Below, one piece after another: positions 4,883-48,122 of a stretch of 64,000 bases of DNA; within the stretch, counting starts at the first letter, position 1; every line of letters begins with the position of its first letter. The stretch comes from Longibacter salinarum (GTDB taxonomy: Bacteria > Bacteroidota > Rhodothermia > Rhodothermales > Salinibacteraceae): positions 496,001-560,000 of the forward strand of contig NZ_PDEQ01000002.1 of assembly GCF_002554795.1 (NCBI RefSeq), given 5' to 3'. Below the pieces are notes generated by a model. That model was not told the DNA's origin, ran no database searches, and worked only from the letters and a program-made list of their open reading frames with translations. The position numbers and the translations under genes were made by a program.

Positions 4883-7800
4883 ATGCACGATCCCATGAAA
4901 CGATGGGCTACAATCCCAATCTTGCTCGCTATTTTTCTGGTGGTGTCCGCCATACCAGCGATGGGGCAGGGGGTAACGACAGCGACCATGCGTGGTCAGG
5001 TCACGGACGACACCGGTGAACCCCTTCCCGGGGCGAACGTCATCGCGGTACACGAACCATCTGGGACTCAGTATGGCACGACCAGCAACCCCAACGGTCG
5101 ATTTACGCTTCCCAATATGCGCGTCGGCGGTCCGTATCGTCTCCGCGTCACGTTTGTCGGATACGAACCGTACACGCAGACCGGTTTAACGCTCGATCTG
5201 AATCAGGTATACGAGCTCGATGTCGAGCTGCGTCCTGGGACGGAGGAGTTGGAAGGTGTCGAAGTGACGGCCGAACGGGGAGGCATTTTCAATGCCGAGC
5301 GAACCGGCATTGAGCGGAGCATCGGTGCGGATGAAATCGACTCCGCTCCCACGCTCGGACGCGACCTCGCTGACTACACGCGTCTGACCCCTCAGGCGTA
5401 CGTCGAGAATGACGACGATGACGGCCCGGCCATTTCGATTGCCGGACAGAACAACCGTTTCAACTCGATCTTTATCGATGGCGCCGTCAATAACGATGTC
5501 TTCGGCTTGTCCGCTCAGGGGACGAACGGCGGGCAAACGGGCGTTACGCCGATCAGCCTCGACGCGATCGAACAGTTTCAGGTCTCGCTTTCGCCGTTCG
5601 ATGTCACACAGTCCGGGTTTACCGGTGGCGCGATCAACGCCGTGACGCGGTCCGGTACCAACCAGCTGGAAGGATCGTTTTACTACTTCGGCCGGCGCGA
5701 CTGGCTCACCGGGCGTGACCCGATTGCGGGGCCGGACGGCGTGCGTGGACGGCTGAATCAGTTCTCCGATAATCGCTTTGGCTTCCGCCTCGGCGGCCCG
5801 ATCGTACAAGACGAGTTGTTCTTCTTCGTGAACGCGGAATACCTCGATCGCGCAATTCCGCAGCCGTATGCTCCAAGCACGTACATCGGCGACTCCGGAG
5901 ACGATACATTCGAGACGATCCAGTCCGTGCTTCAGCAGGAGCTAAACTTCGATCCAGGCAGCTTCCGCGACAAGACGACGACCGTGGAGAGTCCGAAGGT
6001 GTTCGCCAAGCTCAACTGGAACGTCAGCCAGAATCACAAGCTGATGCTTCGGCACAGCTACACGAAGGGCGAGAACACCGACCAATTCAGAAGCGCCAGC
6101 GGCGAGATCAATTACACGTCCTCCGCGGAGGTCTTCCCGAGCACGACCAACTCTACGGCGTTTGAGGTGAACTCGACGTTCGGCGACAACATGTCGAACA
6201 AATTTATCCTCGGGTATACCCGTGTTCGCGACGATCGGAACGCTGCGGCCATTTTCCCAACGATCAATATCACCGATGGACAGGGAGAAATTAACCTCGG
6301 AGCGGAGCCCTTCTCGACGGCCAACATCCTTGAGCAGGATGTCTTCACCGTGACGAATAATTTCAGCTACTTCGTCGGTGATCACACCCTCACCGTCGGG
6401 ACGCACAACGAGTTCTACTCCATCTTCAATAACTTCATTCCGTTTAACTACGGCTGGTACTTCTACGACAGTCCCGAGCAATTCCTCGAAGGCGTTTGTG
6501 CTGCCGGTGGAGGCCAGAGTAGTTTCTGCCAGAACAACTACCCGAACGCGCAGGATGCGGTCATTTTTGCGCAGCGCGGCTTCTCCATCCCGGATCTGCG
6601 TGATGGCACGGGACAGTTCGGCGACAATGCCAACAGCTCGGAGACGTTCAACGCTTTCCAACTCGGCCTATATGCACAAGACGAATGGCGGATCAGCGAC
6701 AACTTCCGCCTGACCTTCGGTCTTCGTCTCGATGTGCCGAAGATCACGACGGAGCCGCCGTTCTACGGTGAAAACTTTGACGGCCGAGACGACGGAGACG
6801 GGGTATTTAACTCGACGCTCCGCGCGATCCGGGAAGGAGAGGAGATCGACGTGCAGGCGGACCCGAACGACCCGCTCCAGACAGACGTCACGTTCACAAA
6901 TGTAAGTGGGTTCGACGGGTACGATCTGAAAGGGGCCGAGCCGGGCAAGACGCCTGCTGCGCAGTTCCTGCTCTCGCCGCGTGCCGGCTTTAACTGGGAC
7001 GTGCAGGGAGACAACGCCACGCAAATCCGTGGGGGTGTTGGTATCTTCACTGGCCGCGTTCCCTATGTGTGGCCCGGTGGCATGTTCTTGAACAACGGCG
7101 TGTCCAACGGAATCTACGCGCGTTTCGGTGAGAATCCGCTGCGCCCCGATCCAGCGAATGGCCTGACGCCACTCGACTTCCCGAGTGATTTCGGCGGGGT
7201 AACGTCAGCTGAGGCCCTCGCACCGAGCGGTCGCCTTGAGATTTTCGAGGACGACTTCAAGTATCCGCAGGTCGTTCGAACCAATCTGGGCATCGACCAG
7301 CGACTGCCGTACGGTTTTGTGGCGACGTTGGAAGGACAGTACACGAAGACCCTCAGCAACCTGACGGTCTTCAATATGAACATTAAACCGGCTAACGCGA
7401 CGCTGAACGGTCCCGACGATCGTCCCATATGGGCATACGGCACGCCGGATGATGGCGAGTGGGATATCAGCGAGGCCTTGATCGACCCGCGGTACGAGGC
7501 GATTCATCGCGTCGGCAGCACCAGCAAAGGCTACACGTACGATATTACCGGTCGACTGCAGAATACGGTTGACACGCAGTACGGTCTGTTCAACTCGAGC
7601 GTATCGTACACCTACGGCGATGCGTTTGCCGTCAACGATGGCACCTCCTCGCAGATTAACTCCAACTGGGAGGATGTCGAAAACGTGAACGGGCTCAATG
7701 GTGTCGGCCGGTCTCGATCCGACTTTTCGATTGGTCACCGTGTGCTGGCTTCGTTCCGGTACAAGGTCGGTGGCACTGAGCTGTCCGTCCTGTATAATGG

Positions 7801-8488
7801 GGAATCGGGTCGTCCCTTCTCCTATATCATCGGCGGTAGCGGCGATGGATTCATGGTCGGCGCCGGTGGTGGGGGAGATGACCGTGCACTGTTCTACGTC
7901 CCGGAGAATGCGAGCAATCTCGTTTTCGAGGATATCACGGTTCGTGGTCAGCTCGACGTAACGGCCGAACAGCAGGCGCAGGCGCTGGATGCCTTTATCA
8001 ACGGCATCGACGCGCTGTCCGAGACCCGTGGCGGCTACATGGAGCGCAACGACGACCGGACACCGTTCGAACACGTGGTCGACCTACGCTTCCGCCAGGA
8101 AATCTTCGGCGAGTTCTTCGACGAGACGTTCGAGCGTCAGCAGTCGCTCGAGTTCACGTTGGATATCTTCAACTTCACGAACCTCCTCAACGAGAAGTGG
8201 GGGCGCCGATACTTTGGCGTCGGGGACTTCAGCGTCACCGAGTTCGAGAACTTCGTCGATGGCCCGAACGGCGATTACACGCCAGTTTACTCGTTCACTC
8301 GGCCGTTTACCAATTTCCTGAATGAGAACCCGCAGTTCGACGGAACGAGCCTCACGCAGGACGAGCTGGAGCGCGCGATCGAAGCGTACGATAGCAAAGA
8401 CGACGTCTTCCGTGACCAGATTATCGACTCGGGAAGCAATTATGGGTCCCGCTGGCAGATCCAGATCGGCTTCCGATACACCTTCTAA
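4883..8488 (+). CDS. Oar-like TonB-dependent outer-membrane receptor (paralogue 1)
   Basis: 1201-residue outer-membrane protein. The N-terminus has a signal peptide (hydrophobic core then AIPAMGQG). A CarboxypepD_reg beta-sandwich follows (about residues 35-120; RGQVTDDTGEPLPGANV, GRFTLPNMRVGGPY). A plug domain comes next (IERSIGADEIDSAPT, SIAGQNNRFNSIFIDGAV, GFTGGAINAVTRSGTNQLEG), and then a large beta-barrel ending in the typical terminal aromatic residue (GFRYTF). The arrangement matches the Oar/OmpA-like TonB-dependent receptors of Bacteroidota and Myxococcota. Such proteins import or display large ligands; the ligand here is unknown. Either ATG 4883 or ATG 4895 could start it. It is strongly similar in its N-terminal part to the receptor at 9235-12480. 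An intrinsic terminator follows at 8558. Confidence 0.93.
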   Translation: MHDPMKRWATIPILLAIFLVVSAIPAMGQGVTTATMRGQVTDDTGEPLPGANVIAVHEPSGTQYGTTSNPNGRFTLPNMRVGGPYRLRVTFVGYEPYTQTGLTLDLNQVYELDVELRPGTEELEGVEVTAERGGIFNAERTGIERSIGADEIDSAPTLGRDLADYTRLTPQAYVENDDDDGPAISIAGQNNRFNSIFIDGAVNNDVFGLSAQGTNGGQTGVTPISLDAIEQFQVSLSPFDVTQSGFTGGAINAVTRSGTNQLEGSFYYFGRRDWLTGRDPIAGPDGVRGRLNQFSDNRFGFRLGGPIVQDELFFFVNAEYLDRAIPQPYAPSTYIGDSGDDTFETIQSVLQQELNFDPGSFRDKTTTVESPKVFAKLNWNVSQNHKLMLRHSYTKGENTDQFRSASGEINYTSSAEVFPSTTNSTAFEVNSTFGDNMSNKFILGYTRVRDDRNAAAIFPTINITDGQGEINLGAEPFSTANILEQDVFTVTNNFSYFVGDHTLTVGTHNEFYSIFNNFIPFNYGWYFYDSPEQFLEGVCAAGGGQSSFCQNNYPNAQDAVIFAQRGFSIPDLRDGTGQFGDNANSSETFNAFQLGLYAQDEWRISDNFRLTFGLRLDVPKITTEPPFYGENFDGRDDGDGVFNSTLRAIREGEEIDVQADPNDPLQTDVTFTNVSGFDGYDLKGAEPGKTPAAQFLLSPRAGFNWDVQGDNATQIRGGVGIFTGRVPYVWPGGMFLNNGVSNGIYARFGENPLRPDPANGLTPLDFPSDFGGVTSAEALAPSGRLEIFEDDFKYPQVVRTNLGIDQRLPYGFVATLEGQYTKTLSNLTVFNMNIKPANATLNGPDDRPIWAYGTPDDGEWDISEALIDPRYEAIHRVGSTSKGYTYDITGRLQNTVDTQYGLFNSSVSYTYGDAFAVNDGTSSQINSNWEDVENVNGLNGVGRSRSDFSIGHRVLASFRYKVGGTELSVLYNGESGRPFSYIIGGSGDGFMVGAGGGGDDRALFYVPENASNLVFEDITVRGQLDVTAEQQAQALDAFINGIDALSETRGGYMERNDDRTPFEHVVDLRFRQEIFGEFFDETFERQQSLEFTLDIFNFTNLLNEKWGRRYFGVGDFSVTEFENFVDGPNGDYTPVYSFTRPFTNFLNENPQFDGTSLTQDELERAIEAYDSKDDVFRDQIIDSGSNYGSRWQIQIGFRYTF

Positions 8489-8491
8489 GCG

Positions 8492-8525
8492 AGTGCGAAG
8501 TTCGTAATTCGACGTGCGAAGTGTT
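8492..8525 (+). repeat. Dispersed intergenic repeat (TGCGAAG family), copy 1
   Basis: TGCGAAGTTCGTAATTCGAC followed by GTGCGAAGTGT lies just after the receptor stop codon. Related sequence occurs twice, in opposite orientations, between cysD and cysN (61113-61239). The shared unit is TGCGAAGTT plus GTGCGAA plus GTGT. It looks like a small non-coding repeat family. Confidence 0.4.
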
Positions 8526-8557
8526 TGTGTCACGTTTTCTGCTCCGCATATCATCTA

Positions 8558-8593
8558 GCGGGCGGTCGTTTATACGCGGCCGTCCGCTTTTTT
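8558..8593 (+). terminator. Intrinsic terminator after Oar-like receptor 1
   Basis: An 11-bp stem (8558-8568 with 8577-8587, two G-U pairs), an 8-base loop and six T residues directly after the stem. Confidence 0.85.
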
Positions 8594-8748
8594 ACTGCTC
8601 AACGCATTCCATCGACTTTGCACTGCATATTTAAACCGTTGACACGGCGGAACGGCAGGTCTTGAGAGATGCAACTTTGGATCGCGAACATCGCTTTAGT
8701 TTCGCCTGAAATCGGCGTGTGTGCGATGTGTCTGCAGATTATCGTTTT

Positions 8749-8779
8749 GTAAACCTGGTTCTTTAAACAGGATCTTTAC
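8749..8779. promoter_or_regulatory. Interrupted inverted repeat upstream of Oar-like receptor 2
   Basis: GTAAA-CCTG at 8749-8757 is mirrored by CAGG at 8768-8771 and TTTAC at 8775-8779. The arms are short and separated, so this may be an operator or a weak RNA structure; it could also be chance. Confidence 0.2.
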
Positions 8780-9234
8780 CATGCCCAAGTGCCGCCACGT
8801 TACTATGAAGCCGTGTTGTTGAGACACGCTCCGCGCGCTGCATAAATCGCCCCCTGGGTCTGCGCGGATGCCCTCCCCATTCCTGTCACGCTGGCTTCGC
8901 GAGTTGCTCGCTTCGACCTTTCGGTGTCAGATATCGAGGTCGGACGAGTCGCCTACCGTCATGCGTCTCTCCTCTTTGACCGGTCTCTCGTCAATGACTG
9001 GCTGCTCGTCGCCGAGCAGGCAGAAGCGACCGGTTTTTTCTATGCCCGATTGTTTCGTGGGCATCGGGCGAACCGAGGATATGCGTTTGGCTCGGTGGTC
9101 GAAGGCAAACCGCTCGTGTCGAACCCTGCAGGACCGCTCCGGCGGGGCAAATCGTCTCCTGACGTCCTGATATGGACCAGGGTGACCCCTCGACAGCACA
9201 CGGCCTCTTTTTGAACACACCAACACCCCTCGAT

Positions 9235-12200
9235 ATGAAGCTTACGGCTACACGGTGGCTATCGCTGATATGCCTCCTCCTCGTGCTTCCGGTGGCTCCC
9301 GCCCTCGGTCAGAGTACGACGGCGTCGATCACCGGATCGGTGGTTGATCAGTCTGGAGAAACGATTCCAGGTGCGAACGTCGTCGCCATCCACCAGCCGA
9401 CCGGCACGCAGTACGGAACGGCAACGAATGCACAGGGTCGGTTTTCGATTCTTAATATGCGCGTGGGAGGTCCGTACCTCGTACGCGCTTCTTTCGTCGG
9501 GTACCAGACGGTTGAGAAGACCGGCGTGATGCTCGACCTGAACGAGAAAGCAACCATTGACTTCCAGCTCCGCCCGAAGACGGAAGAGCTTGAAGGCGTG
9601 GAAGTGATCGCGGAGCGAGAGGGCGTCATCGACGCCAATCGCACCGGTGCTGCGACGAATATTCGTCAGGAGCAGATCGACGCGCTGCCGTCGATCAGCC
9701 GTAGCATCACGGATTACGCACGCCTCACGCCTCAGTACACTGGAGGTGGAAGCCTTGCCGGTAACAACGACCGGTACAACAGCATCTCGGTCGACGGCGC
9801 CACGCTCGACGACGTATTTGGCCTCGGCGATGCCGTGCCCGGCAGCCAGGCGGGAACGCAGCCGATCAGCCTCGACGCGATCGAGGAGTTTCAGATCGAC
9901 ATCGCCCCGTATGACGTTCGGAAGAGCGGCTTCACGGGTGGTCAAATCAACGCCGTCACGAAGAGTGGCTCCAACGAGTTCGAAGGACTCGTTCGCTACT
10001 TCGGTCGGAATGAGAGCTTCACCGGCGATCTTCAGGGCGAAGGTACAGGAGAGTTCAGCCGTCAGTACTTCATCGGCAACGTCGGCGGCCCAATTATCGA
10101 AGACGAGCTTTTCTTCTTCGTGAACGCGGAGTACGTCACGCAGAAGAATCCGCAGAACACGGGGATCGGGCCGGGACCGAATAATTTCCAGATCTCCGGT
10201 GTGGACACGCGAGACTACATCGACCAGGTCGCTGACATCTCGCAAAACGTCTATGGCTACAATCCTGGTGGAACATCCGTGATCTCGGAGAACCAGGATA
10301 GCTATAAGTTTCTGGCGAAGCTCGACTGGAACCTGAACGACAATAACCGCCTGACGCTTCGCCACAACTACGTGAAGGGTCTTGACGATAGTGGGCTTGG
10401 GCGAGGCGAGAACAGCTTCGATTTCTCGAGCCAGCTCTATCAGTTTTCGAGTGTGCAAAACTCGACGGTGCTCCAGCTCAACACGACGCTGGGTGACAAC
10501 ATGTTTAACGAGGCACGCGTCGTCTACACGCGCATTCGTGATTCGCGAGACATCGGCGACGAAACATTCTCCGATGTCACGCTCGTGCCGTCATCGGACT
10601 CACAGATCCAGCTAGGACCTGGCCGGTTCAATCAGGCGAACCGCCTCGATCAGGACCTTGTCGAAATCACCAACGACTTCTCGTACGTGCGTGGCAATCA
10701 TACCTTCACGCTCGGCACGAACAATCAGATCTGGAGCTTTAGCAACCTGTTCATCCAGGACTTCTACGGACAGTTTGAGTTTGAGCCGCTCGAGAGTGAT
10801 GGTGACCGTGTGATCTCGGCTCTGGACGCGTATGAGCGAGGTCAGCCGACCGTGTATCGTTACAGCTACGCCACGGAGGCAGCCGGCACGGAAAAACCGA
10901 TCGCCGAATTTACGGCCTTCCAGGTAGGACTCTACGCTCAGGATGAGTGGCAAGCACTTGAAAATCTACGCCTGACGTTCGGACTGCGTGCAGACATGCC
11001 GATCATCCCAGACAACCCAACGTTCAATCCAACAGCATACGAGGCGTTTGGGGTTAGCACATCGAGCGTTGCGACGGGGAATCCAATCTGGTCACCGCGC
11101 TTCGGCTTTAACTACAGCAACGACTACCTCGGTGAAGACTTCGAGACGCAGGTCCGAGGTGGTATCGGCCTGTTCGCCGGAGACCCACCATTTGTCTGGA
11201 TCTCGAACCAGTTCAGCAACACAGGGGCCGACTTTGTTCGCATCGAAGAGCGTTTTGGGTACGATGATTATTACGACGGCCCGAACGACACCCCTGGTCG
11301 TCGATTCGTCCCGACGGATCTCGGTGAGAACACGCGCGAGAAGCTTCCGCGTGCCGGTGACAACGCGCTGATTACCCCGGTTGCTACGACCGAGATCAAC
11401 GTGATTTCGGATGATTTCAAGTACCCGCAGGTCTTCCGGACCAACCTTGCGATTGACCAGCAGCTACCAAATGGCTTCGCTGTTACGCTTGAGGGACTCT
11501 ATTCCAGCACGGTGAATGGCGTCACCTTCACCAACCTCAATTACGAGCAGACGGACGAATCGAAGTACGGTCGTCCGATTTACGGCCAGACGGTGAGCCC
11601 CCGGTTCACGAACGCCCTTCTTCTCAAGAATACAAACAAGGGCTACTCATACAGCGGGACGATTCAGCTTCAGCGCCAGGTGCGTGAAGGCCTGAGCGGG
11701 TCGCTCTCGTATACACTCAACGAAGCTCGCTCGGTAAATACCGGCTCCTCGAGCCGTGCGATCTCTAACTGGCAGTTCAACGAGAACGTGGACGTGAATA
11801 ACCCGCGTCTCGGTCGGACGGATCAGGCCCTGCGTCACCGTGTGCTCGGTACGCTGAACTATCGTCTGGAGTACTTGGATCGCTTCGCTACGACCGTTGG
11901 CCTAATTTACGATGGTCGCTCCGGACAGCCGTTTAGCTGGATTTACGCCGGTAATGCCAATGGCGACACGCAGAGCTTTAACGATCTCGTGTACGTTCCC
12001 GAGGGGCCGAACGATGTTGTTCTCGAGTCGGAGAACTGGGAGTCGATGAACGCCTTCATCAATGCCTGGGATGGCCTTGATGATTACCGTGGCGGCTTTA
12101 CAAAGCGAAACATCGACATGGGTCCCTGGAGCCATCAGATCGATCTGCAGATTTCGCAAAACATCGTGACGTATCAACAGCAGAAGCTGGAGATTACAGC

Positions 12201-12480
12201 CACGATGGAGAACGTCCTGAACTGGATCAACGACGACTGGGGCCGTCAGCAGTTCGTGCAGTTCCAGAACAGTGTTGCCTGGGACTTCAGCGGCTACGTT
12301 GAATCGGCGGATGTCGGAAGTGAACTCGGTGGCCGCATCCTTACGCAAGATGACGTTGGCAAGCCGATCGTTAGCTTCGACGAGTCGAATCTTCAGGAAA
12401 CGGCTTCGGATGAGCTTTTCCAGACGTCGAACATCGGGTCGCGCTGGCAGGTGCAGCTTGGCCTACGCTACACGTTCTAA
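9235..12480 (+). CDS. Oar-like TonB-dependent outer-membrane receptor (paralogue 2)
   Basis: 1081-residue outer-membrane receptor. ATG 9235 is chosen because it gives a clean signal peptide (MKLTATRW, hydrophobic core, PALGQ); an upstream in-frame ATG at 9172 would add 21 residues ahead of it. Domain order is CarboxypepD_reg (GSVVDQSGETIPGANVVAIH, GRFSILNMRVGGPY), plug (NIRQEQIDALPS, SLAGNNDRYNSISVDGATL, GFTGGQINAVTKSGSNEFEG), and a beta-barrel ending in LGLRYTF. The N-terminal third closely tracks the receptor at 4883-8488, whereas barrel loops differ, which suggests tandem duplication and different ligand specificity. The OB-fold lipoproteins and endonuclease I follow on the same strand. 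Confidence 0.93.
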   Translation: MKLTATRWLSLICLLLVLPVAPALGQSTTASITGSVVDQSGETIPGANVVAIHQPTGTQYGTATNAQGRFSILNMRVGGPYLVRASFVGYQTVEKTGVMLDLNEKATIDFQLRPKTEELEGVEVIAEREGVIDANRTGAATNIRQEQIDALPSISRSITDYARLTPQYTGGGSLAGNNDRYNSISVDGATLDDVFGLGDAVPGSQAGTQPISLDAIEEFQIDIAPYDVRKSGFTGGQINAVTKSGSNEFEGLVRYFGRNESFTGDLQGEGTGEFSRQYFIGNVGGPIIEDELFFFVNAEYVTQKNPQNTGIGPGPNNFQISGVDTRDYIDQVADISQNVYGYNPGGTSVISENQDSYKFLAKLDWNLNDNNRLTLRHNYVKGLDDSGLGRGENSFDFSSQLYQFSSVQNSTVLQLNTTLGDNMFNEARVVYTRIRDSRDIGDETFSDVTLVPSSDSQIQLGPGRFNQANRLDQDLVEITNDFSYVRGNHTFTLGTNNQIWSFSNLFIQDFYGQFEFEPLESDGDRVISALDAYERGQPTVYRYSYATEAAGTEKPIAEFTAFQVGLYAQDEWQALENLRLTFGLRADMPIIPDNPTFNPTAYEAFGVSTSSVATGNPIWSPRFGFNYSNDYLGEDFETQVRGGIGLFAGDPPFVWISNQFSNTGADFVRIEERFGYDDYYDGPNDTPGRRFVPTDLGENTREKLPRAGDNALITPVATTEINVISDDFKYPQVFRTNLAIDQQLPNGFAVTLEGLYSSTVNGVTFTNLNYEQTDESKYGRPIYGQTVSPRFTNALLLKNTNKGYSYSGTIQLQRQVREGLSGSLSYTLNEARSVNTGSSSRAISNWQFNENVDVNNPRLGRTDQALRHRVLGTLNYRLEYLDRFATTVGLIYDGRSGQPFSWIYAGNANGDTQSFNDLVYVPEGPNDVVLESENWESMNAFINAWDGLDDYRGGFTKRNIDMGPWSHQIDLQISQNIVTYQQQKLEITATMENVLNWINDDWGRQQFVQFQNSVAWDFSGYVESADVGSELGGRILTQDDVGKPIVSFDESNLQETASDELFQTSNIGSRWQVQLGLRYTF

Positions 12481-12495
12481 CGCAGCCGCCGCCGC

Positions 12496-12522
12496 GCCTG
12501 CCCCGTTTTTTTCGGGGTGGGC
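12496..12522 (+). terminator. GC hairpin with poly-T loop after receptor 2
   Basis: A 10-bp stem (12496-12505 with 12513-12522, two G-U pairs) encloses a loop of seven T residues and starts 16 bases after the receptor stop. There is no T-run after the stem, so it may act as an RNA-stabilising or partial terminating hairpin that lets the lipoprotein genes be transcribed at a lower level. Confidence 0.4.
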
Positions 12523-12609
12523 TCGGCTGGCTTGATGCACTGCACCGGCTGCGGTACCCCAACCGTAGCACATGACTCCCTAACGTTGCTACAACGCTCT
12601 ACTAACCCT

Positions 12610-13653
12610 ATGTATCGATTGCGAACGCTTTTCTTCTCGATTCTGACGCTCGTCGCGTTCAGCCTTACGGCGTGCGACAGCGGCACGGCGCCCGGACAGG
12701 AATCCGGACCGGGAGCGCCGACTCTATCCATCTCAAGCAGCACAGTCGCAGCACCGGAGATTGACACGACGATCTCCTTCGACGTGGAACTCCGAAACCC
12801 GATCGGCGCAGAGGTCACGGCCGAACTTATTTACGCCGCCGGTGCTAGCTCGGCGGGACCGGAAGATCTTGGGTTTTCGACGGACGGGCTCCCGCAAATT
12901 GGTGATGCTTTCGTCGTCGAGACGCTCACGTTCCCGGCGGGGACAACTGACGACGTCACCCGGACGTTCACGTACAACATTCTCGACACCCTCGACGCAG
13001 AAGCACGAGAATCGGCCTTCTTTGCCCTGCAGAACGTTTCTTCACCAGAGCAGATTGCAGTCGGCAACAACCAGATCGAGGTTTCCATCGGATTTCGCCC
13101 CATTCGGGAGATTCGGCAGTTCGACGATGGACGGACCGTTGCTGCCAATGGCATTGTGACGCGCTATGACGATCGAAATGTTTACTTCCAAGACGAGACA
13201 GCCGGCATCGTCGCGTTCGAATTTGCCGGCGAAATCGCTGACGGGACGAGCATTGGCGACGAGATTGTCGTGAACGGAGAGCTCGGTGAGTTCAACGGTC
13301 TCCGCCAGGTTGGTCCGACGGTGAACAGCTTCTCAGTGATATCCACCGGCAATGATCTCCCCGATCCGCTCAACGTCACGATCGACGATATCACGAGCGC
13401 GGGCGAAAGCTACGAAGGTCGTCTTGTGCGCGTCGAGAACATCACGACGAATGCGCAGGGCACCTTCTCGTCGGGTACTACCTACGAGGCGACCGACGCA
13501 AGCGGCTCCATGGCCTTCCGGGTTCAGGGAAGCAGTCCTGTGGGCGGCGCCGACGTCCCGAGTGGCGAGTTCACGTTTGAGGGAGTTGTTGGTGAGTTCC
13601 AGGGCGAATATCAACTCCTTCCGCTTCGCGAGACCGACATCATCACGCAGTAG
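12610..13653 (+). CDS. Secreted lipoprotein with Calx-beta-like and OB-fold (DUF5689-like) domains
   Basis: 347-residue lipoprotein. ATG 12610 gives a signal peptide with lipobox LTAC. The first part (about residues 35-155) is a Calx-beta/cadherin-like beta-sandwich (LSISSSTVAAPEIDTTISF). The second (about 160-345) is an OB-fold module as found beside bacterial extracellular nucleases (GIVTRYDDRNVYFQDETAG, GELGEFNGLRQVGPT, LLPLRETDI). OB folds of this class bind oligonucleotides or sugars; I infer a substrate-binding role at the outer membrane and see no catalytic motif. The module is nearly duplicated in the next gene. The gene sits 129 bases behind a TonB receptor and is followed by a hairpin at 13664. 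Confidence 0.85.
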   Translation: MYRLRTLFFSILTLVAFSLTACDSGTAPGQESGPGAPTLSISSSTVAAPEIDTTISFDVELRNPIGAEVTAELIYAAGASSAGPEDLGFSTDGLPQIGDAFVVETLTFPAGTTDDVTRTFTYNILDTLDAEARESAFFALQNVSSPEQIAVGNNQIEVSIGFRPIREIRQFDDGRTVAANGIVTRYDDRNVYFQDETAGIVAFEFAGEIADGTSIGDEIVVNGELGEFNGLRQVGPTVNSFSVISTGNDLPDPLNVTIDDITSAGESYEGRLVRVENITTNAQGTFSSGTTYEATDASGSMAFRVQGSSPVGGADVPSGEFTFEGVVGEFQGEYQLLPLRETDIITQ

Positions 13654-13663
13654 CTCGCATGGC

Positions 13664-13693
13664 GCGGAGGCCTCGCCTCGGTGAGGCCTCCGC
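13664..13693 (+). terminator. Strong hairpin between the two OB-fold lipoprotein genes
   Basis: An 11-bp perfect stem (GCGGAGGCCTC with its complement; 13664-13674 and 13683-13693) with an 8-base loop. No T-run follows, so it is more likely a processing or stability structure than a full terminator. Confidence 0.45.
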
Positions 13694-13740
13694 TGCCTTC
13701 GCGGCATGACCCCAAGCGCATCCCCCGTCAGACTCTATTT

Positions 13741-15354
13741 ATGATCTGCAAGCCTATGCTACGGTTTCTTTCTATCCCTTTTGCGCTCCTGCTTTTTGCA
13801 GCGGTGCTCGCCGGATGCGACAGCAATTCCGGCATTCCGTCCGACGTCGGCGACGACTCTACCATTGCGTTCGCCAAAGAAAGCGATACGGCTCCAGAAG
13901 ATACGTCCACGTACTCGGTTGACGTTGTCGTCAATGATCCAGGGTACAAGGAATTGACGGTCGATGTCGTTCTGTCCCAGGCCAGCACAATTGATCCCTC
14001 GGAGATTGAGCTCCCGGAGAACACGACGCTGTCGTTCCCGAAGAGCACGACCGGCGGGGAATCGAAAACGTTCACGTTTGAGGTCGTTGATGATGATACG
14101 TTCCTGGAAGGGGATGAAACCATCATTCTCGAACTCCAAAACGCAACAGGCGCGTCAACGGACGAGGTTCTGTCGACATTTACGCTGACGGTAACGGAGG
14201 ATGATGTTACTCTCACGACCATGGAAGCGAAGGCCCTTCCGGAAGGCGAGCGAGCGATCGTTGATGGGATTGTGACCCGCGTCGAGAGCGACGGCTTTTA
14301 TCTCCAAGACGACACCGGCGCGTTGTTCGTCTTCGACAGCTCCATTTCAAGTGAGGTCACTCAAGGCGACGAGGTTCGTGTCGATGGCTCGACAACATAC
14401 TTCAGCGGTCTCTTTCAGATCGAAAGCGTTGGAACGGATGGCCTGACGGCTCTTTCTTCTGGAAATAGTCTGCCGGATGTTCAGGTCGTAACGCTTGGAG
14501 AACTCGAGAGCAATGGCGAAGAATATGAAAGCGAGTTGATCCGCGTCGAAGGATTCGATATTGACGACGGTGGGGATGCAACGTTCGCCGGCGGGTCCAA
14601 CTACCCGGTTAGCAACACCTCTGGTTCGCTCACTCTCCGGATTCCAGGCGGCTCCGAACTTGAGGGAGACCCGATTCCTGCTACGGCCAATTTCCAGGGC
14701 GTACTCGGCCAGTTTAACAACTTTGGCGAGCCGGATGATAACACCGGCTACCAGCTGCTCGGCCTCCTTGATTCTGACGTACAGGACGCCAGTGCTCCAG
14801 CTATTACTATTGCTGAGGCTCGGGCAGCCAGCGACGGTACAAACGTCATAGTGGAGGGCATCATCACGCGCTACGATGGTGAAAATGTGTTCTTCCAGGA
14901 CGATACCGCTGGCATTGTGGCCTTTGAGTTTGATGGTAATATCGCCTCAGGTACAGCAATCGGCGATGAGCTCCGTGTTGAAGGCGAAGTTGGTGAATTC
15001 AACGGCCTCCGTCAGGTCGGACCAACCATAACCAGTTTCGAAGTGCTCTCGAGCAACAACACACTGCCAACGCCGGTTGATGCCACCATCAACGAAATCA
15101 CGAGCGATGGCGAAGCGTACGAAGGCGAGTTAGTGCGCGTCACCGGTCTCTCAGTGGATGCCACAGGTACATTTTCGGGAGGCACAACGTATACCGCGAC
15201 CGACGCGTCAGGTAGCATGGCCTTCCGTATCCAGGGCGATAGCTTCTACGCGGGTGAATCTGTTCCAGGACAGCCCTTCACCTTTCAGGGCGTAGTCGGA
15301 GAGTATCAGGGCGCTTATCAGCTCCTTCCGCTTCGCGACGGCGATCTGCAGTAA
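13741..15354 (+). CDS. Secreted lipoprotein with Calx-beta domain and two OB-fold modules
   Basis: 537 residues from ATG 13741 (ATG 13756 is equally possible). The signal peptide ends in LAGC. A Calx-beta domain follows (TIAFAKESDTAPEDTSTYSV ... DDDTFLEGDETIILEL). Two OB-fold modules come next. The first spans about residues 160-345 (GIVTRVESDGFYLQDDTGA), the second about 355-537 (GIITRYDGENVFFQDDTAG, GEFNGLRQVGPT). The second is clearly homologous to the single OB module of the preceding gene, with long identical stretches (TAGIVAFEF, GEFNGLRQVGPT, TDASGSMAFR, YQLLPLR), so one arose from the other. Predicted to lie on the cell surface or periplasmic face and bind nucleic acid or glycan; no catalytic residues seen. 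A strong terminator follows. Confidence 0.85.
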   Translation: MICKPMLRFLSIPFALLLFAAVLAGCDSNSGIPSDVGDDSTIAFAKESDTAPEDTSTYSVDVVVNDPGYKELTVDVVLSQASTIDPSEIELPENTTLSFPKSTTGGESKTFTFEVVDDDTFLEGDETIILELQNATGASTDEVLSTFTLTVTEDDVTLTTMEAKALPEGERAIVDGIVTRVESDGFYLQDDTGALFVFDSSISSEVTQGDEVRVDGSTTYFSGLFQIESVGTDGLTALSSGNSLPDVQVVTLGELESNGEEYESELIRVEGFDIDDGGDATFAGGSNYPVSNTSGSLTLRIPGGSELEGDPIPATANFQGVLGQFNNFGEPDDNTGYQLLGLLDSDVQDASAPAITIAEARAASDGTNVIVEGIITRYDGENVFFQDDTAGIVAFEFDGNIASGTAIGDELRVEGEVGEFNGLRQVGPTITSFEVLSSNNTLPTPVDATINEITSDGEAYEGELVRVTGLSVDATGTFSGGTTYTATDASGSMAFRIQGDSFYAGESVPGQPFTFQGVVGEYQGAYQLLPLRDGDLQ

Positions 15355-15420
15355 GCCGGTAGGTAGCTGATTTGAGAGCGCACAGTCTGGCCAAAACGGC
15401 GGAGGCTGTGAGAAATCACC

Positions 15421-15459
15421 GAACGGAGACGGTTTTCTAACCGTCTCCGTTCGTTTTTT
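15421..15459 (+). terminator. Intrinsic terminator after OB-fold lipoprotein
   Basis: A perfect 14-bp stem (15421-15434 with 15439-15452), TTCT loop, then G and six T residues. It separates the lipoprotein pair from the endonuclease gene. Confidence 0.93.
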
Positions 15460-15543
15460 GATATTCGTACCTGTACGTTACGGAGCGTGGCCAGACGTAG
15501 ATCTGCCGCGTCCATACATTCGTCTCCTCGTATTTGCTTTTTT

Positions 15544-18500
15544 ATGCGAACGCAACCGCTACTACGCTTTCTCACGTTCCTGGCGCTATTGGTCGTTGCC
15601 AGCACATCGGGCACAGTCGCCCAGTCAGTGGTCACGATTGCTGAGGCGCGGAGCCAGGGTGTCGATGCGACGGTGACGGTGGAAGGGACGGTGACCCGTG
15701 CCTTCGGTTCGTTCGTCCGCCTTCAAGATGATAGCGGTACGACGGGAGCGAGTGCTCTCGTCATCCGCCAGACCAGCGGGCCGTTCAACACAGATGTGAC
15801 TAGTGGTGTCATCACGGCAGGCACGCAGCTCCAGGTGACCGGTACGCTGTCCGAGTTTAATGGACTGCTACAAATCAATGAGAGCGACCTGGGTGATTAC
15901 CAGGTGTTAGGTCAGGGATCCGTTCCAGCCCCCCAGTCTGTGTCGATTGATGACTTGGCGTCAGCCGGAGAGGATTACGAATCGGAACTGGTGTCCATTT
16001 CGAGCCTCAGTTTTCAAAGCGCGAGTGGCGTCTTTGCGAATGGCGAAGACTACACTGTTGTAGGAGAAACAGGATCATTCCCATTCCGCGTTCAACAAGC
16101 GGATGAGACGCAACTCGCCGGCACTACAATTCCGGCAGGTGCGTTCGAATATGAAGGCGTCGTTGGTCAGTTTATCAATGATTATCAGTTGATTCCGGTA
16201 CTGGAAAGCGACGTGCAGTCGTCTCGCTCATTCCGGTTCAATCGCATTTTTGCCAACGTCGAAGAAGGGACGGGTACGGTATCGGTTGACGTTTCCGCCC
16301 TTAACGTGGCAGATGGCGAGACCGTATCCGTTACCGTAGACGCTGGAGCGGGGAGCACGGCTGAGGTGGGTACGGATGTAACCGGCCTGACGGTACCCCA
16401 AACGCTGACATTTACAGATGCGGACCCTGCGCCACAGTCCATTTCAGTTAATGTCTCTGACGATACGGAAACGGAGGGGCTCGAGCGCCTGGAACTCGTT
16501 CTCTCGTCCGCGGATGGTGCCATTGCGGTGCCTGGTCGGTTTACGATTTGGATTCGTGACGACGCAACGGCGCAGGGGACCGTCGCTAGTGGGGAGACGG
16601 GTGATATACTGGTCGAGACTCTTCAGGCTACATTTGGGTCGGCACCGACACTCGGATACGACATCGCTCGGGATTCGCTCTACCGTACCATCTACAACGA
16701 CGGTGGCATCGTAGAGGGCATTTACACTGGTTTTCAGGCAACGGTCGATCCGAACGGAGGTGATGCCAGTCAGCAGGCCGGTGATGATGGAGTGAATACG
16801 GAGCACATCTGGCCGCGTAGTCAGGGAGCAGAGGAGGAGCCGGCGCTGAGCGACATGCACATCCTGGCACCGGCCTTCGGGAGTGTTAACTCCGCGCGAA
16901 GCAACTACGCGTATGGTGAGATTCCGAATACGGAGACAGACACGTGGTTCTTTGAGGATCAGTCGCAATCCACCATCCCGGCGTCGAATATCGACGCGTG
17001 GAGTGAGCTTGACGATAGTCCCACCCGAACCGACCGGCGGTTTGAGCCGCGCGAGGCTGTAAAGGGTGATGTGGCACGAGCCGCCTTCTACTTCGTCACG
17101 ATGTATCCCAATCGCGCGAACCTGCAGTTTTACGAGCAGCAGCGAGAGACACTGTTTCAGTGGCACCAAGACGACCCCGTCGATGCGGCAGAGGTCCGCC
17201 GTAACATCATCCAGGCCAGTTACCAGGGTAATAAGGTGAACCCGTTTATCGTCGATCCTACGCTGATCGACCGGGCTTACTTCAGTGGTGGGGGTTCGCC
17301 GTCGCCGACGGTTATTTCCATTCGTGAGGCTCGACAGCTAGGCGGGGGAGCGACCGTAACAGTCGAAGGTACCGTTACTCGTCTAACAGATGATGGGCCG
17401 TACATCCAGGATGCCACGGCCGGCCTCTACGTATTCGAGTCACAGGGGGCGTTCGGGAGCGATCTTGGCAACACCATCCAGGTCGGCACGGAGCTCTGCG
17501 TTACGGGTTCGTTAGAATACTACAACGGACTCCTCGAGCTCACGGATGTGGCTGACGGTCAGTATGAGGCTGTCTCACAGGGAAATACGCTTCCGACTCC
17601 ACCGGTCGTCACGCTGAGTGATATCGTCTCGAACGGTGAGGACTATGAGGCTGAACTTGTTCGCGTTGAAGATATTCAGATCGAGGCCAACGGGGACGCA
17701 ACGTTTCAGGCAAGCACAAATTATGCGGTCACCGATGCCTCTCTTGGGACCCCCACAGACGCCGTTTCGATGCGCATTCCGGATGGATCACCGCTTGTCG
17801 GCGTCGAAATTCCCGTCACCACCACGTTTGCCGGTGCGCTTGGGCAGTTTAATGGGGAAGGCTTCGAAAGCGACGAACCAGACACTGGTTATCAACTTCT
17901 TGGATTAGCTACGAGCGATCTACAGGGTGCAGGGGGGACGATCCCCGACGAAACAAAGCTAGATGTGTCACTCTCTTTCGGAAGTACAGGGGAGACGGCC
18001 AGTTATCGTCTCGTCGGCCTTGCTGGACAAGTTGATCGGTCGATCGCTACGACCCTGTCCGGAGCACCAGAAGTTTCTTGGACGGCATTCCACGATACGG
18101 GTGCGTCGCAGGACTACCTGCAAACGTACGATGGTTCTGATACGTTCAACTTCAGGCCGGGGCGAGGATTCTGGCTTCTTAGCACGAGCGATTGGACCGT
18201 GTCCGAAACGGTGTCGAACGTCAATGTCTCGAATAACACGACCACGGTCCCGCTTCATGACGGATGGAATATCATCTCGAACCCGCTTCCGCTAGACGTT
18301 TCCTGGAGTGCGGTCGTTAGCGCGAATGGCGGTTCCCTGCAACCGATTTGGCAATGGGACGGGAGCTTCCAGCAGACAGCATCATTTACGGCTGCAACCG
18401 GAGGGGAAGCGTTTTACTTCCTGAACGACCAGGGTTTAACCGAACTAACGATTCCGACCGGGGCTTCCTCGACCCCCACTACACTTGCGACACACAGTAT

Positions 18501-19239
18501 AGATATGACCCGCCATGTGGAGCTTGAGGTCACGGATAGAAGCGGAAACGTCTCCCGGATCCAAGTCGGGGAGATGAAGAACGCTCACCGTGGGATTGAT
18601 CCGTACGATCACGTCGCTCCACCAACGGGATTCGCGCGGACGGCGCTTCGTGTCCAAGCACCAGGGGCTGACAACAAACGGGAGAAATATCTGGCGCGAG
18701 ATCTACGCGCACCCGCGAATGGGGGTCAGACATACCCGTTGCGTCTACTTTCGAAAGATGCCCGTGCTGTGACGCTTGGGGTGCAATCGCTGCCGGCGCA
18801 GGCTGGCACGCGAGTCATTCTTGTCAACGACGAAAGCGGCGTACGTCATGATCTGACTTCTACATCTTCGCTGTCCGTAAATCCGTCCCAAACGTCGACC
18901 TCGTGGACGCTACTGGTTGGCACCGAAGCGTACGTGAGCTCGGAGCTAAATGCATCTCCCGATCAGGTCGTTGTTGAACCGCCAGCCCCGAACCCGTTCC
19001 GGGATGCCACCACGATTCGCTACGTGCTCCCTGAATCGAAGGACGTCAAAGTTGAAGTGTATGACCTTCTCGGGCGTCGCTTGCACACGCTGGTTAATAA
19101 GCGCCAATCAGCCGGAGAACACACGATTCGGTGGAACGGCACGAGAGGTAACGGTGCGTCCTTGTCGAGCGGGATGTATTTTGTCCGCATGAATCTGGGG
19201 GCTGTTCAGCACGTCCACAAAGTCGTGCACGTGCGCTGA
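15544..19239 (+). CDS. Multidomain secreted endonuclease I with OB-fold modules and T9SS-type C-terminal domain
   Basis: 1231 residues from ATG 15544, chosen for its signal peptide (MRTQPLLRFLTFLALL ... GTVAQS). Domain order: OB-fold module (about 30-225); Calx-beta (about 230-340; DDTETEGLERLELVL); endonuclease I domain (about 350-580); second OB-fold (about 588-720); beta-rich region with GRGFWLL and DGWNIISNPL; C-terminal sorting-like domain beginning at about residue 1146 (PAPNPFRDATTIRY, VEVYDLLGRRL, SGMYFVRM). The nuclease core carries the metal-dependent motif NTEHIWPRS (418-426), DMHIL (437-441) and N449/R452/N454 (NSARSNYAYG), all expected for an active DNA/RNA endonuclease. It should be exported across the inner membrane by Sec and across the outer membrane by T9SS, then degrade extracellular nucleic acid. 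Flanking terminators suggest its own transcript. Confidence 0.9.
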   Translation: MRTQPLLRFLTFLALLVVASTSGTVAQSVVTIAEARSQGVDATVTVEGTVTRAFGSFVRLQDDSGTTGASALVIRQTSGPFNTDVTSGVITAGTQLQVTGTLSEFNGLLQINESDLGDYQVLGQGSVPAPQSVSIDDLASAGEDYESELVSISSLSFQSASGVFANGEDYTVVGETGSFPFRVQQADETQLAGTTIPAGAFEYEGVVGQFINDYQLIPVLESDVQSSRSFRFNRIFANVEEGTGTVSVDVSALNVADGETVSVTVDAGAGSTAEVGTDVTGLTVPQTLTFTDADPAPQSISVNVSDDTETEGLERLELVLSSADGAIAVPGRFTIWIRDDATAQGTVASGETGDILVETLQATFGSAPTLGYDIARDSLYRTIYNDGGIVEGIYTGFQATVDPNGGDASQQAGDDGVNTEHIWPRSQGAEEEPALSDMHILAPAFGSVNSARSNYAYGEIPNTETDTWFFEDQSQSTIPASNIDAWSELDDSPTRTDRRFEPREAVKGDVARAAFYFVTMYPNRANLQFYEQQRETLFQWHQDDPVDAAEVRRNIIQASYQGNKVNPFIVDPTLIDRAYFSGGGSPSPTVISIREARQLGGGATVTVEGTVTRLTDDGPYIQDATAGLYVFESQGAFGSDLGNTIQVGTELCVTGSLEYYNGLLELTDVADGQYEAVSQGNTLPTPPVVTLSDIVSNGEDYEAELVRVEDIQIEANGDATFQASTNYAVTDASLGTPTDAVSMRIPDGSPLVGVEIPVTTTFAGALGQFNGEGFESDEPDTGYQLLGLATSDLQGAGGTIPDETKLDVSLSFGSTGETASYRLVGLAGQVDRSIATTLSGAPEVSWTAFHDTGASQDYLQTYDGSDTFNFRPGRGFWLLSTSDWTVSETVSNVNVSNNTTTVPLHDGWNIISNPLPLDVSWSAVVSANGGSLQPIWQWDGSFQQTASFTAATGGEAFYFLNDQGLTELTIPTGASSTPTTLATHSIDMTRHVELEVTDRSGNVSRIQVGEMKNAHRGIDPYDHVAPPTGFARTALRVQAPGADNKREKYLARDLRAPANGGQTYPLRLLSKDARAVTLGVQSLPAQAGTRVILVNDESGVRHDLTSTSSLSVNPSQTSTSWTLLVGTEAYVSSELNASPDQVVVEPPAPNPFRDATTIRYVLPESKDVKVEVYDLLGRRLHTLVNKRQSAGEHTIRWNGTRGNGASLSSGMYFVRMNLGAVQHVHKVVHVR

Positions 19240-19289
19240 TTGTCTATCATACCCGACTGTTTTCTTTGCTTCCTTATAGATCGAATCCG

Positions 19290-19721
19290 ATGATACCGCT
19301 CTGCCGAATTGTAATTAATCCATTGCGCCGTCTGACAGCAACGGGGCTCGTAGTCGTACTTCTGTTCGCTGCAGGTTGTGATTCAGGCGGGGATAGCGGT
19401 CCTTCGGGTGAGGCCCCCTCTGTACCGACCGGGATTGATGCTGTGCAGCAGGGCGCAGCCGTAGATGTGACATGGAAAGCGTCTAATCGTGCAGACGGGT
19501 ACAACGTTTATCGTGCACGTGGAGATGCAGAGGTTAATGTGTCGGGCACGCCCGTGAACGGGGAGTCATCTATTAGTGATACACAGTTCTCAGATTCGTC
19601 CGTGCAAAGCGGGACCGTTTATTCCTATCGGGTAACCGCCGTTGGTGCAGGGGGGGCGGAAAGCAACCCGTCCGCATCCATTCAAATACGTGTATTCGCA
19701 GATCCGCCTGCACGTCCGTAA
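19290..19721 (+). CDS. Small FN3-domain lipoprotein
   Basis: 143 residues from ATG 19290. The signal peptide ends with lipobox AAGC; a Ser/Gly/Asp spacer follows, then one fibronectin type III domain (GIDAVQQGAAVDVTWKAS, GYNVYRARGD, SGTVYSYRVTAV) reaching nearly to the C-terminus. It lies 50 bases after the endonuclease gene on the same strand, before a terminator, so the two are probably co-transcribed. It may be an anchoring or binding accessory; nothing catalytic is seen. Confidence 0.8.
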   Translation: MIPLCRIVINPLRRLTATGLVVVLLFAAGCDSGGDSGPSGEAPSVPTGIDAVQQGAAVDVTWKASNRADGYNVYRARGDAEVNVSGTPVNGESSISDTQFSDSSVQSGTVYSYRVTAVGAGGAESNPSASIQIRVFADPPARP

Positions 19722-22538: not shown

Positions 22539-22743
22539 ACCGAGGAGGGGCGTGGAGAGGTCGGTCGGGGTGGCCGTCGAGACCAGATTTCGAGCGTCGA
22601 GAGAGACAGCCGCTGAAAAGATACGAGTCGACATGCTCCGTCACAACCATCAGCGTTCCGCTTACCACATTTCCGGAGCCGTGCGTAACAAACATACGGG
22701 CGAGCACGTGCTGTGGGTGAATTGAGAGGAGACAATCACTGCC

Positions 22744-33961: not shown

Positions 33962-34146
33962 CGTATTTCGGGGTCAGGTAGACGAACGACCAAGAAAACT
34001 CTCGGGAGAGCCCCGTTGCGAGGGAGGCGAACAGGAGACCGTTGACCGGGTACACTGTGCTGTTGCTACCGCGCAGTCATCTGGATCGCGCGGTGGATGC
34101 TTGTGCTCGCGTAATCCCCGTGACCGTCTCTGCCTCTATCGCACGC

Positions 34147-36792: not shown

Positions 36793-37113
36793 TAACCTGT
36801 TTGGCGGATGGATTGCGAAAAGTAAGCGCAGCCGTTCATGTCTATTGTAGTCCGGACGGTTATTCTTTCACAATAGCGCCGTAGACGCGGTGTGTGAGAT
36901 GAACCAGGCCTCGTCTTAGGCGTGTCGCGAGGACCGACCACCGGAAGGTCCGTACGTCCAGATCGCCGAAGGCTGTCCGCCAAACAGGTTCTGCGCAGAT
37001 CGCCATGCGCTTCTGTTGATCTGCCAGCCCGGCCCGGCTCTTTCCTCTCACACGCCGCAGCATACTTCTTTCCATCCTCCCGCGATCGCGTGAAGTCGTC
37101 TCATTCTGATCAC
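36793..37113. other. Intergenic region between receptor and DUF4249-like gene
   Basis: 321 bases. The plus frame is open upstream of the chosen lipoprotein start, but its translation is Arg/Pro-rich and unlike a protein N-terminus. Nothing else is seen. Confidence 0.4.
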
Positions 37114-48076: not shown

Positions 48077-48122
48077 ACGTACTACGTTGGGGTGAGGCGA
48101 AATAAGAAAGGATCCGGTCCGG

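What the first reader, a model, noticed from the sequence alone, without database searches (positions are those of the whole stretch)
4883..19721. Candidate extracellular nucleic-acid capture and degradation locus
Seen: six same-strand genes. Two are Oar-like TonB-dependent receptors. Two are Calx-beta/OB-fold lipoproteins. One is a 1231-residue endonuclease I with two OB-fold modules and a T9SS-type C-terminal domain, and the last is an FN3 lipoprotein. Known: OB folds of this type accompany extracellular nucleases and bind oligonucleotides; endonuclease I degrades DNA/RNA; TonB receptors import large ligands. Inference: surface lipoproteins bind DNA, the secreted nuclease cuts it, and the receptors take up fragments, giving phosphate or nucleotides. 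Purine nucleoside phosphorylase at 40676 could use released nucleosides. I do not know of a described system with this exact composition.
Basis: partly seen in the sequence, partly recalled or inferred. Interest (0 to 1): 0.72.

Follow-up and report, generated by a model that had tools for sequence, protein, structure and literature searches.

The report
Nuclease-linked outer-membrane receptor gene cluster
A salt-loving bacterium and its relatives carry a conserved set of surface genes (a large TonB-type receptor, OB-fold lipoproteins and a secreted DNA/RNA-cutting enzyme), and the same receptor lineage sits beside two other kinds of nucleic-acid or phosphodiester-cutting enzyme in other bacteria, so it probably serves the feeding on, and perhaps the import of, extracellular DNA.

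Summary
The six same-strand genes are real and at the stated coordinates. The order receptor A - receptor B - lipoprotein 1 - lipoprotein 2 - endonuclease I - fn3 lipoprotein recurs in Salinivenus and related halophilic Rhodothermales. The core (receptor B onward) is wider; receptor A moves around.

The strongest new evidence is outside the window. The receptor-B clade, sampled across Bacteroidota, sits beside one of three unrelated hydrolases in 42 of 62 loci: endonuclease I; a DUF5689-EEP nuclease fusion; or a type I phosphodiesterase/nucleotide pyrophosphatase. For A-type receptors at other loci it is 2 of 25. The OB modules model as OB folds, whose best solved matches are HIN, RPA and tRNA-synthetase domains. 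A DUF5689 lipoprotein plus a receptor (not homologous to receptor B) is essential for natural transformation in Riemerella.

Best reading: a surface nucleic-acid capture and degradation locus feeding a TonB-type importer, probably for phosphorus. Degradation is well supported; import is inferred. Two strong terminators argue against one operon, and the purine nucleoside phosphorylase 21 kb away is not linked. It resembles Flavobacterium PUS loci but lacks SusD: a new variant, not categorically new.

The parts
4883..8488 (+). Receptor A: Oar-like TonB-dependent receptor (CarboxypepD_reg + PF25183 barrel, weak Plug)
   Evidence: accompanies receptor B in Salinivenus, GSL bins and other family members; looser partner than the rest of the block
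8557..8588 (+). Terminator-like 13-bp stem with T-run between receptor A and receptor B
   Evidence: pattern match; clearly longer than the other stems listed there
9172..12480 (+). Receptor B: Oar-like TonB-dependent receptor; likely start inside the ORF (ATG of MKLTATRW)
   Evidence: its clade is repeatedly linked with phosphodiester hydrolases
12517..13653 (+). Lipoprotein 1 (lipobox ..LTAC; likely start at MYRLRTLF), DUF5689/OB module; C-terminal domain replaced by choice-of-anchor J in some relatives
   Evidence: lipobox read from the sequence
13681..15354 (+). Lipoprotein 2 (lipobox ..LAGC; likely start at MICKPMLRF): Calx-beta + two DUF5689/OB modules
   Evidence: mean pLDDT 82; OB and Calx-beta matches Z about 12-13
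15420..15453 (.). Perfect 15-bp inverted repeat with T-run: terminator-like site between lipoprotein 2 and the nuclease
15487..19239 (+). Secreted nuclease: signal peptide, OB module, Calx-beta, Endonuclease_1 (about aa 400-600), second OB module, T9SS type A C-terminal domain; 1231 aa from ATG
   Evidence: active-site motifs E439-H440 and N468..R-S-N seen in the sequence
19266..19721 (+). Small fn3 lipoprotein (lipobox ..AAGC), follows the nuclease in relatives

Best explanation
A surface nucleic-acid scavenging locus of halophilic Rhodothermales. The endonuclease I is exported by the Sec and type IX routes and, with its OB modules, binds and cuts extracellular DNA/RNA (supported by families and motifs, not assayed). 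Lipoproteins 1 and 2 display OB modules at the cell surface and hold or hand over the strand or its fragments (inferred from fold). Receptor B, a TonB-type Oar-like outer-membrane channel, imports the oligonucleotides or nucleotides (inferred from its repeated linkage with phosphodiester hydrolases), most likely for phosphorus. Receptor A is an optional second receptor.
For: Conserved order of receptor B - Lp1 - Lp2 - nuclease - fn3 in many family members, and the full six-gene order in Salinivenus lutea and S. iranica (L191, L192) and L260. Receptor B and the endonuclease occur together or are absent together in 23 of 27 family genomes (Fisher 0.0012), including near-complete genomes of one genus that lack both. 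Across Bacteroidota the receptor-B clade lies by EndoI, DUF5689-EEP nuclease or PF01663 phosphodiesterase in 42 of 62 loci, against 2 of 25 for A-type receptors at other loci (35 of 55 without the loci fetched through EndoI). The three kinds fall in separate parts of the tree: the labels need at least 5 PDE, 2 EEP and 2 EndoI changes (gains or losses). The linked PF01663 gene is usually the only strong one in its genome, and it is adjacent in 19 of 23 genomes that have one. One locus (L203) has PDE + receptor B + a DUF5689 lipoprotein together. OB modules resemble HIN, RPA and tRNA-synthetase OB folds. A T9SS protein (SprA) is present. DUF5689 lipoprotein + receptor essential for transformation in Riemerella, and TonB mutants there transform less. 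EndA nucleases and TonB-linked loci are induced by low phosphate in F. johnsoniae. DNA is a phosphorus source in salterns (PMC8443641).
Against: No substrate data for any of these proteins. The window's OB modules are very acidic (pI 4.05, 3-4% K+R), which is usual for halophiles but gives no positive face. The catalytic domain did not model well. 19 of 62 receptor-B loci have no such hydrolase nearby, and in Longimonas receptor B and the OB-nuclease are unlinked. Part of the PDE linkage may be inherited from one ancestor, and sampled rows are not independent. Neighbouring peptidases (M19 dipeptidase; S9 peptidase, the latter also in relatives) point to peptides, if anything.
Confidence: 0.6

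Rival explanations
1. Degradation without import of polymer fragments: the secreted nuclease and OB lipoproteins degrade extracellular DNA (phosphorus feeding or clearing of slime), small products pass through porins, and the Oar-like receptors carry some other ligand and are neighbours only by shared regulation.
For: No receptor here has a known ligand; terminators separate the nuclease from receptor B; some relatives have the OB-nuclease without adjacent receptor B (L036, L037, L042).
Against: Three non-homologous hydrolase types by the same receptor clade and joint presence/absence are hard to explain if the ligand is unrelated.
Confidence: 0.2
2. A DNA-uptake route for natural transformation: receptor B plus DUF5689 lipoproteins bring DNA through the outer membrane to ComEC, as proposed for RA0C_RS04915/04920 of Riemerella.
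For: The Riemerella pair is essential for transformation (PMC8459023); lipoprotein-2 homologues L034 and L041 have the same architecture, DUF5689 + choice-of-anchor J, and match the family NF052645. ComEC is present in the genome.
Against: The Riemerella-type receptor (proxy L170) has no detectable similarity to receptor B; a nuclease beside the receptor suits feeding better than transformation; ComEC lies on another contig.
Confidence: 0.1
3. Receptor B is an exporter for its neighbour hydrolase, as the Oar receptor of Myxococcus is needed for secretion of the protease PopC.
For: Oar-type receptors can act in secretion (PMC6434023); the linked hydrolases look secreted.
Against: The nuclease and the EEP fusion carry T9SS sorting domains and the genome has SprA; a general exporter would not choose only phosphodiester hydrolases.
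Confidence: 0.05

Closest known systems
PUS (phosphate utilisation system) loci and low-phosphate EndA nucleases of Flavobacterium johnsoniae (PMC8115612)
   Same: TonB-linked outer-membrane receptor and surface lipoprotein beside phosphodiester hydrolases; PF04231 extracellular nucleases in the same low-phosphate response; proposed to scavenge phosphodiesters including nucleic acids
   Different: PUS uses SusC/SusD pairs; here there is no SusD domain but DUF5689/OB lipoproteins and Oar-like receptors, and the nuclease is inside the locus. Regulation here is unknown.
RA0C_RS04915/RA0C_RS04920 natural-transformation pair of Riemerella anatipestifer (PMC8459023)
   Same: CarboxypepD_reg outer-membrane barrel next to a DUF5689 lipoprotein; lipoprotein-2 homologues in two relatives share the DUF5689 + choice-of-anchor J layout
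   Different: Receptor not detectably homologous to receptor B in a proxy; no endonuclease I in the pair (an EEP_3 gene lies beside some proxies); function there is genetic uptake
ExeM/NucH extracellular nucleases (NF033681)
   Same: OB module fused or adjacent to a secreted nuclease; the OB parts of lipoprotein 2 and the nuclease match this model's N-terminal region
   Different: Catalytic domain here is endonuclease I, not EEP; the full model's cutoff is not reached
Oar of Myxococcus xanthus (PMC6434023)
   Same: Oar-type domain layout: CarboxypepD_reg extension on a large TonB-type barrel
   Different: Oar is required for export of a protease and lies by its own Ton genes, not by nucleases

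Membership tests
Endonuclease I (PF04231) | Whole-family HMM above curated cutoff | tested here: met
   99.1 bits against 25, aa 425-591; also aligns with Vibrio nuclease 1OUP, E 8e-4
Endonuclease I (PF04231) | Catalytic Glu-His and the Mg-binding Asn of the beta-beta-alpha-Me site | tested here: met
   Motifs TEHIWP (E439, H440) and VNSARSN (N468) present; residue roles from memory of the Vvn structure; the domain model itself was poor
T9SS type A cargo | Por_Secre_tail at the C-terminus and a T9SS in the genome | tested here: met
   TIGR04183 38.1 bits against 23; SprA_N match 1.5e-76 in the same genome; other T9SS parts not searched
Oar-type TonB-dependent receptor | N-terminal CarboxypepD_reg and outer-membrane barrel | tested here: met
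   PF13620 and PF25183 over cutoff in both receptors
Oar-type TonB-dependent receptor | Plug domain and dependence on TonB | tested here: inconclusive
   Receptor A has Plug at 23.1 bits, just under the 23.9 cutoff; receptor B has no Plug hit by Pfam; TonB dependence needs experiment
PUS / SusCD-type locus | SusD-family lipoprotein next to SusC-type receptor | tested here: not met
   No SusD family in any lipoprotein; they are DUF5689/OB proteins
PUS / SusCD-type locus | Induction by phosphate limitation | not testable with these tools
   No expression data for this organism
Riemerella-type transformation pair | Homologous receptor | tested here: not met
   Proxy receptor L170 (beside an NF052645 lipoprotein) shows no significant similarity to receptor B; the Riemerella sequence itself was not available
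Riemerella-type transformation pair | DUF5689 + choice-of-anchor J lipoprotein | tested here: inconclusive
   Met in relatives L034 and L041; the window's own lipoprotein 2 has two DUF5689 modules and no choice-of-anchor J
Riemerella-type transformation pair | Requirement for transformation | not testable with these tools
   Needs a knock-out

The most novel reading that the evidence does not exclude
The receptor-B clade is a widespread family of Oar-type outer-membrane transporters dedicated to nucleic-acid fragments or nucleotides, which has been paired again and again with whichever phosphodiester hydrolase its lineage had (endonuclease I, DUF5689-EEP nuclease, nucleotide pyrophosphatase). 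As far as I know it would be the first TonB-type importer assigned to nucleic acids as food.
Probability: 0.4. Interest if true: 0.8.

Novelty: new variant of a known kind. Interest (0 to 1): 0.6.

Why it matters
Extracellular DNA is an important phosphorus pool in brines, sediments and sea water, yet how Gram-negative bacteria carry its fragments through the outer membrane is largely open. A receptor clade tied to three unrelated phosphodiester hydrolases gives a concrete, testable candidate in cultivable genera (Salinivenus, Salinibacter, Fodinibius), and it would link feeding on DNA with the DUF5689 lipoproteins needed for DNA uptake in Riemerella.

Tried and rejected
Linkage to the PNP at 40.6 kb: real gene but 21 kb away with unrelated genes between; dropped. 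One six-gene operon: rejected because of two strong terminator-like sites. Direct homology of receptor B with the Riemerella-type transformation receptor: tested with a proxy, no significant similarity. My first gene calls picked wrong-strand ORFs in GC-rich relatives, corrected by homology-first picking. Structure of the nuclease catalytic domain: confidence too low with 8 sequences, so no structural claim is made for it. Promoter scan: 6 hits against 6.6 expected, no information. No paper in the library mentions DUF5689 apart from PMC8459023, and a search linking Oar-like receptors with nucleotide pyrophosphatase gave nothing relevant. In the Rhodothermales genomes checked, the PF01663 gene, where present, is not beside receptor B, so that linkage is a feature of other lineages.
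Full report
What is there. The window is G000:C2:496001-560000 of a 4.4-Mb genome. Its closest relative in the collection is a Great Salt Lake bin (receptor B 83% identical, L185), and named relatives are Salinivenus and Longimonas. G008 has a contig of 3,551,823 bases, which I remember as the chromosome length of Salinibacter ruber DSM 13855. All six reported genes are present on the + strand at the given coordinates. Domain searches confirm two Oar-type receptors (CarboxypepD_reg + PF25183 barrel), two lipoproteins with DUF5689/OB modules, an endonuclease I with OB modules, Calx-beta and a T9SS sorting domain, and an fn3 lipoprotein. Lipoboxes (LTAC, LAGC, AAGC) are visible in the sequence. 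The nuclease keeps the Glu-His (E439, H440) and Asn (N468) motifs that, from my knowledge of the Vibrio enzyme, form the active site, and it aligns with 1OUP over the Asn region. The genome has the T9SS protein SprA. Strong terminator-like stems at 8557-8588 and 15420-15453 divide the set into receptor A; receptor B + lipoproteins 1 and 2; and nuclease + fn3 lipoprotein.

Conservation. Of the genomes searched with PF04231, many of the family have the block receptor B - Lp1 - Lp2 - nuclease - fn3 in the same order (L034, L035, L038, L040, L041, L044). With named records the full six-gene order including receptor A is seen in Salinivenus lutea (L191), Salinivenus iranica (L192) and in L260. L187 has receptor A on the other side; L194 has two A-type receptors. 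In the family, receptor B and the endonuclease are both present in 16 genomes, both absent in 7, and only one is found in 4, of which one is a contig edge (Fisher 0.0012; genomes are related, so this is a guide). In some relatives they are unlinked (G003 Longimonas). There receptor B still has a small lipoprotein behind it whose start looks like lipoprotein 1 (L189:13494-14516), so receptor B + lipoprotein 1 looks like the core pair. The C-terminal half of lipoproteins 1 and 2 swaps between an OB module and a choice-of-anchor J domain among relatives. The G000 genome has DUF5689 only in these three proteins.

Receptor B beyond the family. A search of 394 Bacteroidota genomes found receptor-B homologues in about half. 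I fetched about 100 neighbourhoods and annotated them with profiles built here and checked by Pfam on samples. In a tree of 95 receptors the clade holding receptor B has 62 rows. Eight lie by endonuclease I, 13 by a protein that fuses DUF5689 with an EEP nuclease (Pfam-confirmed in L116, with a T9SS-like tail), and 21 by a PF01663 type I phosphodiesterase/nucleotide pyrophosphatase of about 410 aa (Pfam-confirmed in L090, L091, L119). For A-type receptors at loci without a receptor-B row it is 2 of 25 (Fisher 2e-7, rows not independent). Leaving out the loci fetched through endonuclease I, it is still 35 of 55. On a second tree of 48 rows the labels need 10 changes (25 when shuffled), and the PDE, EEP and EndoI groups are not explained by one event each. 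The strong PF01663 gene is adjacent to receptor B in 19 of the 23 genomes that have one, while in Rhodothermales it is elsewhere or absent. Locus L203 joins the versions: phosphodiesterase, receptor B and a DUF5689 lipoprotein. This is the main reason why I think the receptor's ligand is a product of phosphodiester cleavage. It is association, not proof.

OB modules. Lipoprotein 2 models well (mean pLDDT 82) as Calx-beta (Z 12.9, 2.2 A over 109 residues to CALX CBD1) and OB folds (Z about 12, 1.8 A over 84 residues to p204 HINa; also archaeal RPA, asparaginyl-tRNA synthetase, YgiW). The OB modules of the nuclease give the same kind of matches. A shared fold does not show function. The modules are very acidic (pI 4.05, 3-4% Lys+Arg), like the other exported proteins of this locus in a halophile, whereas DUF5689 modules in EEP fusions from other lineages have pI 5.6-8.4.

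Independent link of DUF5689 to DNA. The only paper in the library that mentions DUF5689 reports that in Riemerella anatipestifer a DUF5689/DUF5017 lipoprotein and the CarboxypepD_reg barrel protein of the same predicted operon are each essential for natural transformation (PMC8459023). tonB mutants there transform less (PMC8383284; the authors ascribe one of the two effects to iron). In Flavobacteriales genomes I found a pair of this kind, in several cases next to an EEP-family gene. Their receptor is not detectably similar to receptor B, but the lipoproteins belong to the same domain family, and two lipoprotein-2 homologues here share the DUF5689 + choice-of-anchor J layout and match NF052645.

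Comparison with the known. Flavobacterium johnsoniae induces TonB-linked PusCD loci with phosphodiesterases, and two PF04231 extracellular nucleases, under phosphate depletion (PMC8115612). The present locus works on the same plan but has no SusD, so it is not a member of PUS as defined. In salterns DNA serves as a phosphorus source (PMC8443641). Steps shown: gene content, order, conservation, linkage, predicted folds. Steps inferred: surface display of lipoproteins, DNA binding, import by receptor B, role in phosphorus supply.

Verdict. Observation confirmed. Interpretation partly supported: degradation of extracellular nucleic acids likely, import plausible and now better grounded, PNP link dropped, single operon rejected.

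Noticed in passing
window 34042-38070: A second receptor/lipoprotein pair: TonB-dependent receptor followed by a DUF4249 lipoprotein, unrelated to the finding.
   Followed up: partly
window 42938-48217 (-): 1759-aa Peptidase_C25 protein with CARDB and FlgD-like tail (PorU/gingipain-like).
   Followed up: partly
L087/L088 against L161: In one genus (g11) the same site beside an S9 peptidase and two large proteins (one with a T9SS tail, the other of no known family) holds receptor B in some species and an A-type receptor in another, as if the receptor had been exchanged.
   Followed up: no
window 20100-22634 (-): An S9 (DPP-IV-like) peptidase lies next to the block in several relatives too (L040, L041, L048), facing it; a possible hint at peptides or plain synteny.
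   Followed up: partly
L116, L117, L149, L150 and others: A protein of about 230 aa (DUF4397 in L116) lies between receptor B and the DUF5689-EEP nuclease in the EEP-type loci; a possible counterpart of the lipoproteins here.
   Followed up: no
L038:13257-14915: One relative has a second OB/endonuclease I-type gene directly after the fn3 lipoprotein.
   Followed up: no
L228-L240: Receptor-B homologues of about 40% identity occur in MAGs labelled Aminicenantes, Acidobacteria and Gemmatimonadales, without a recognised hydrolase nearby.
   Followed up: no
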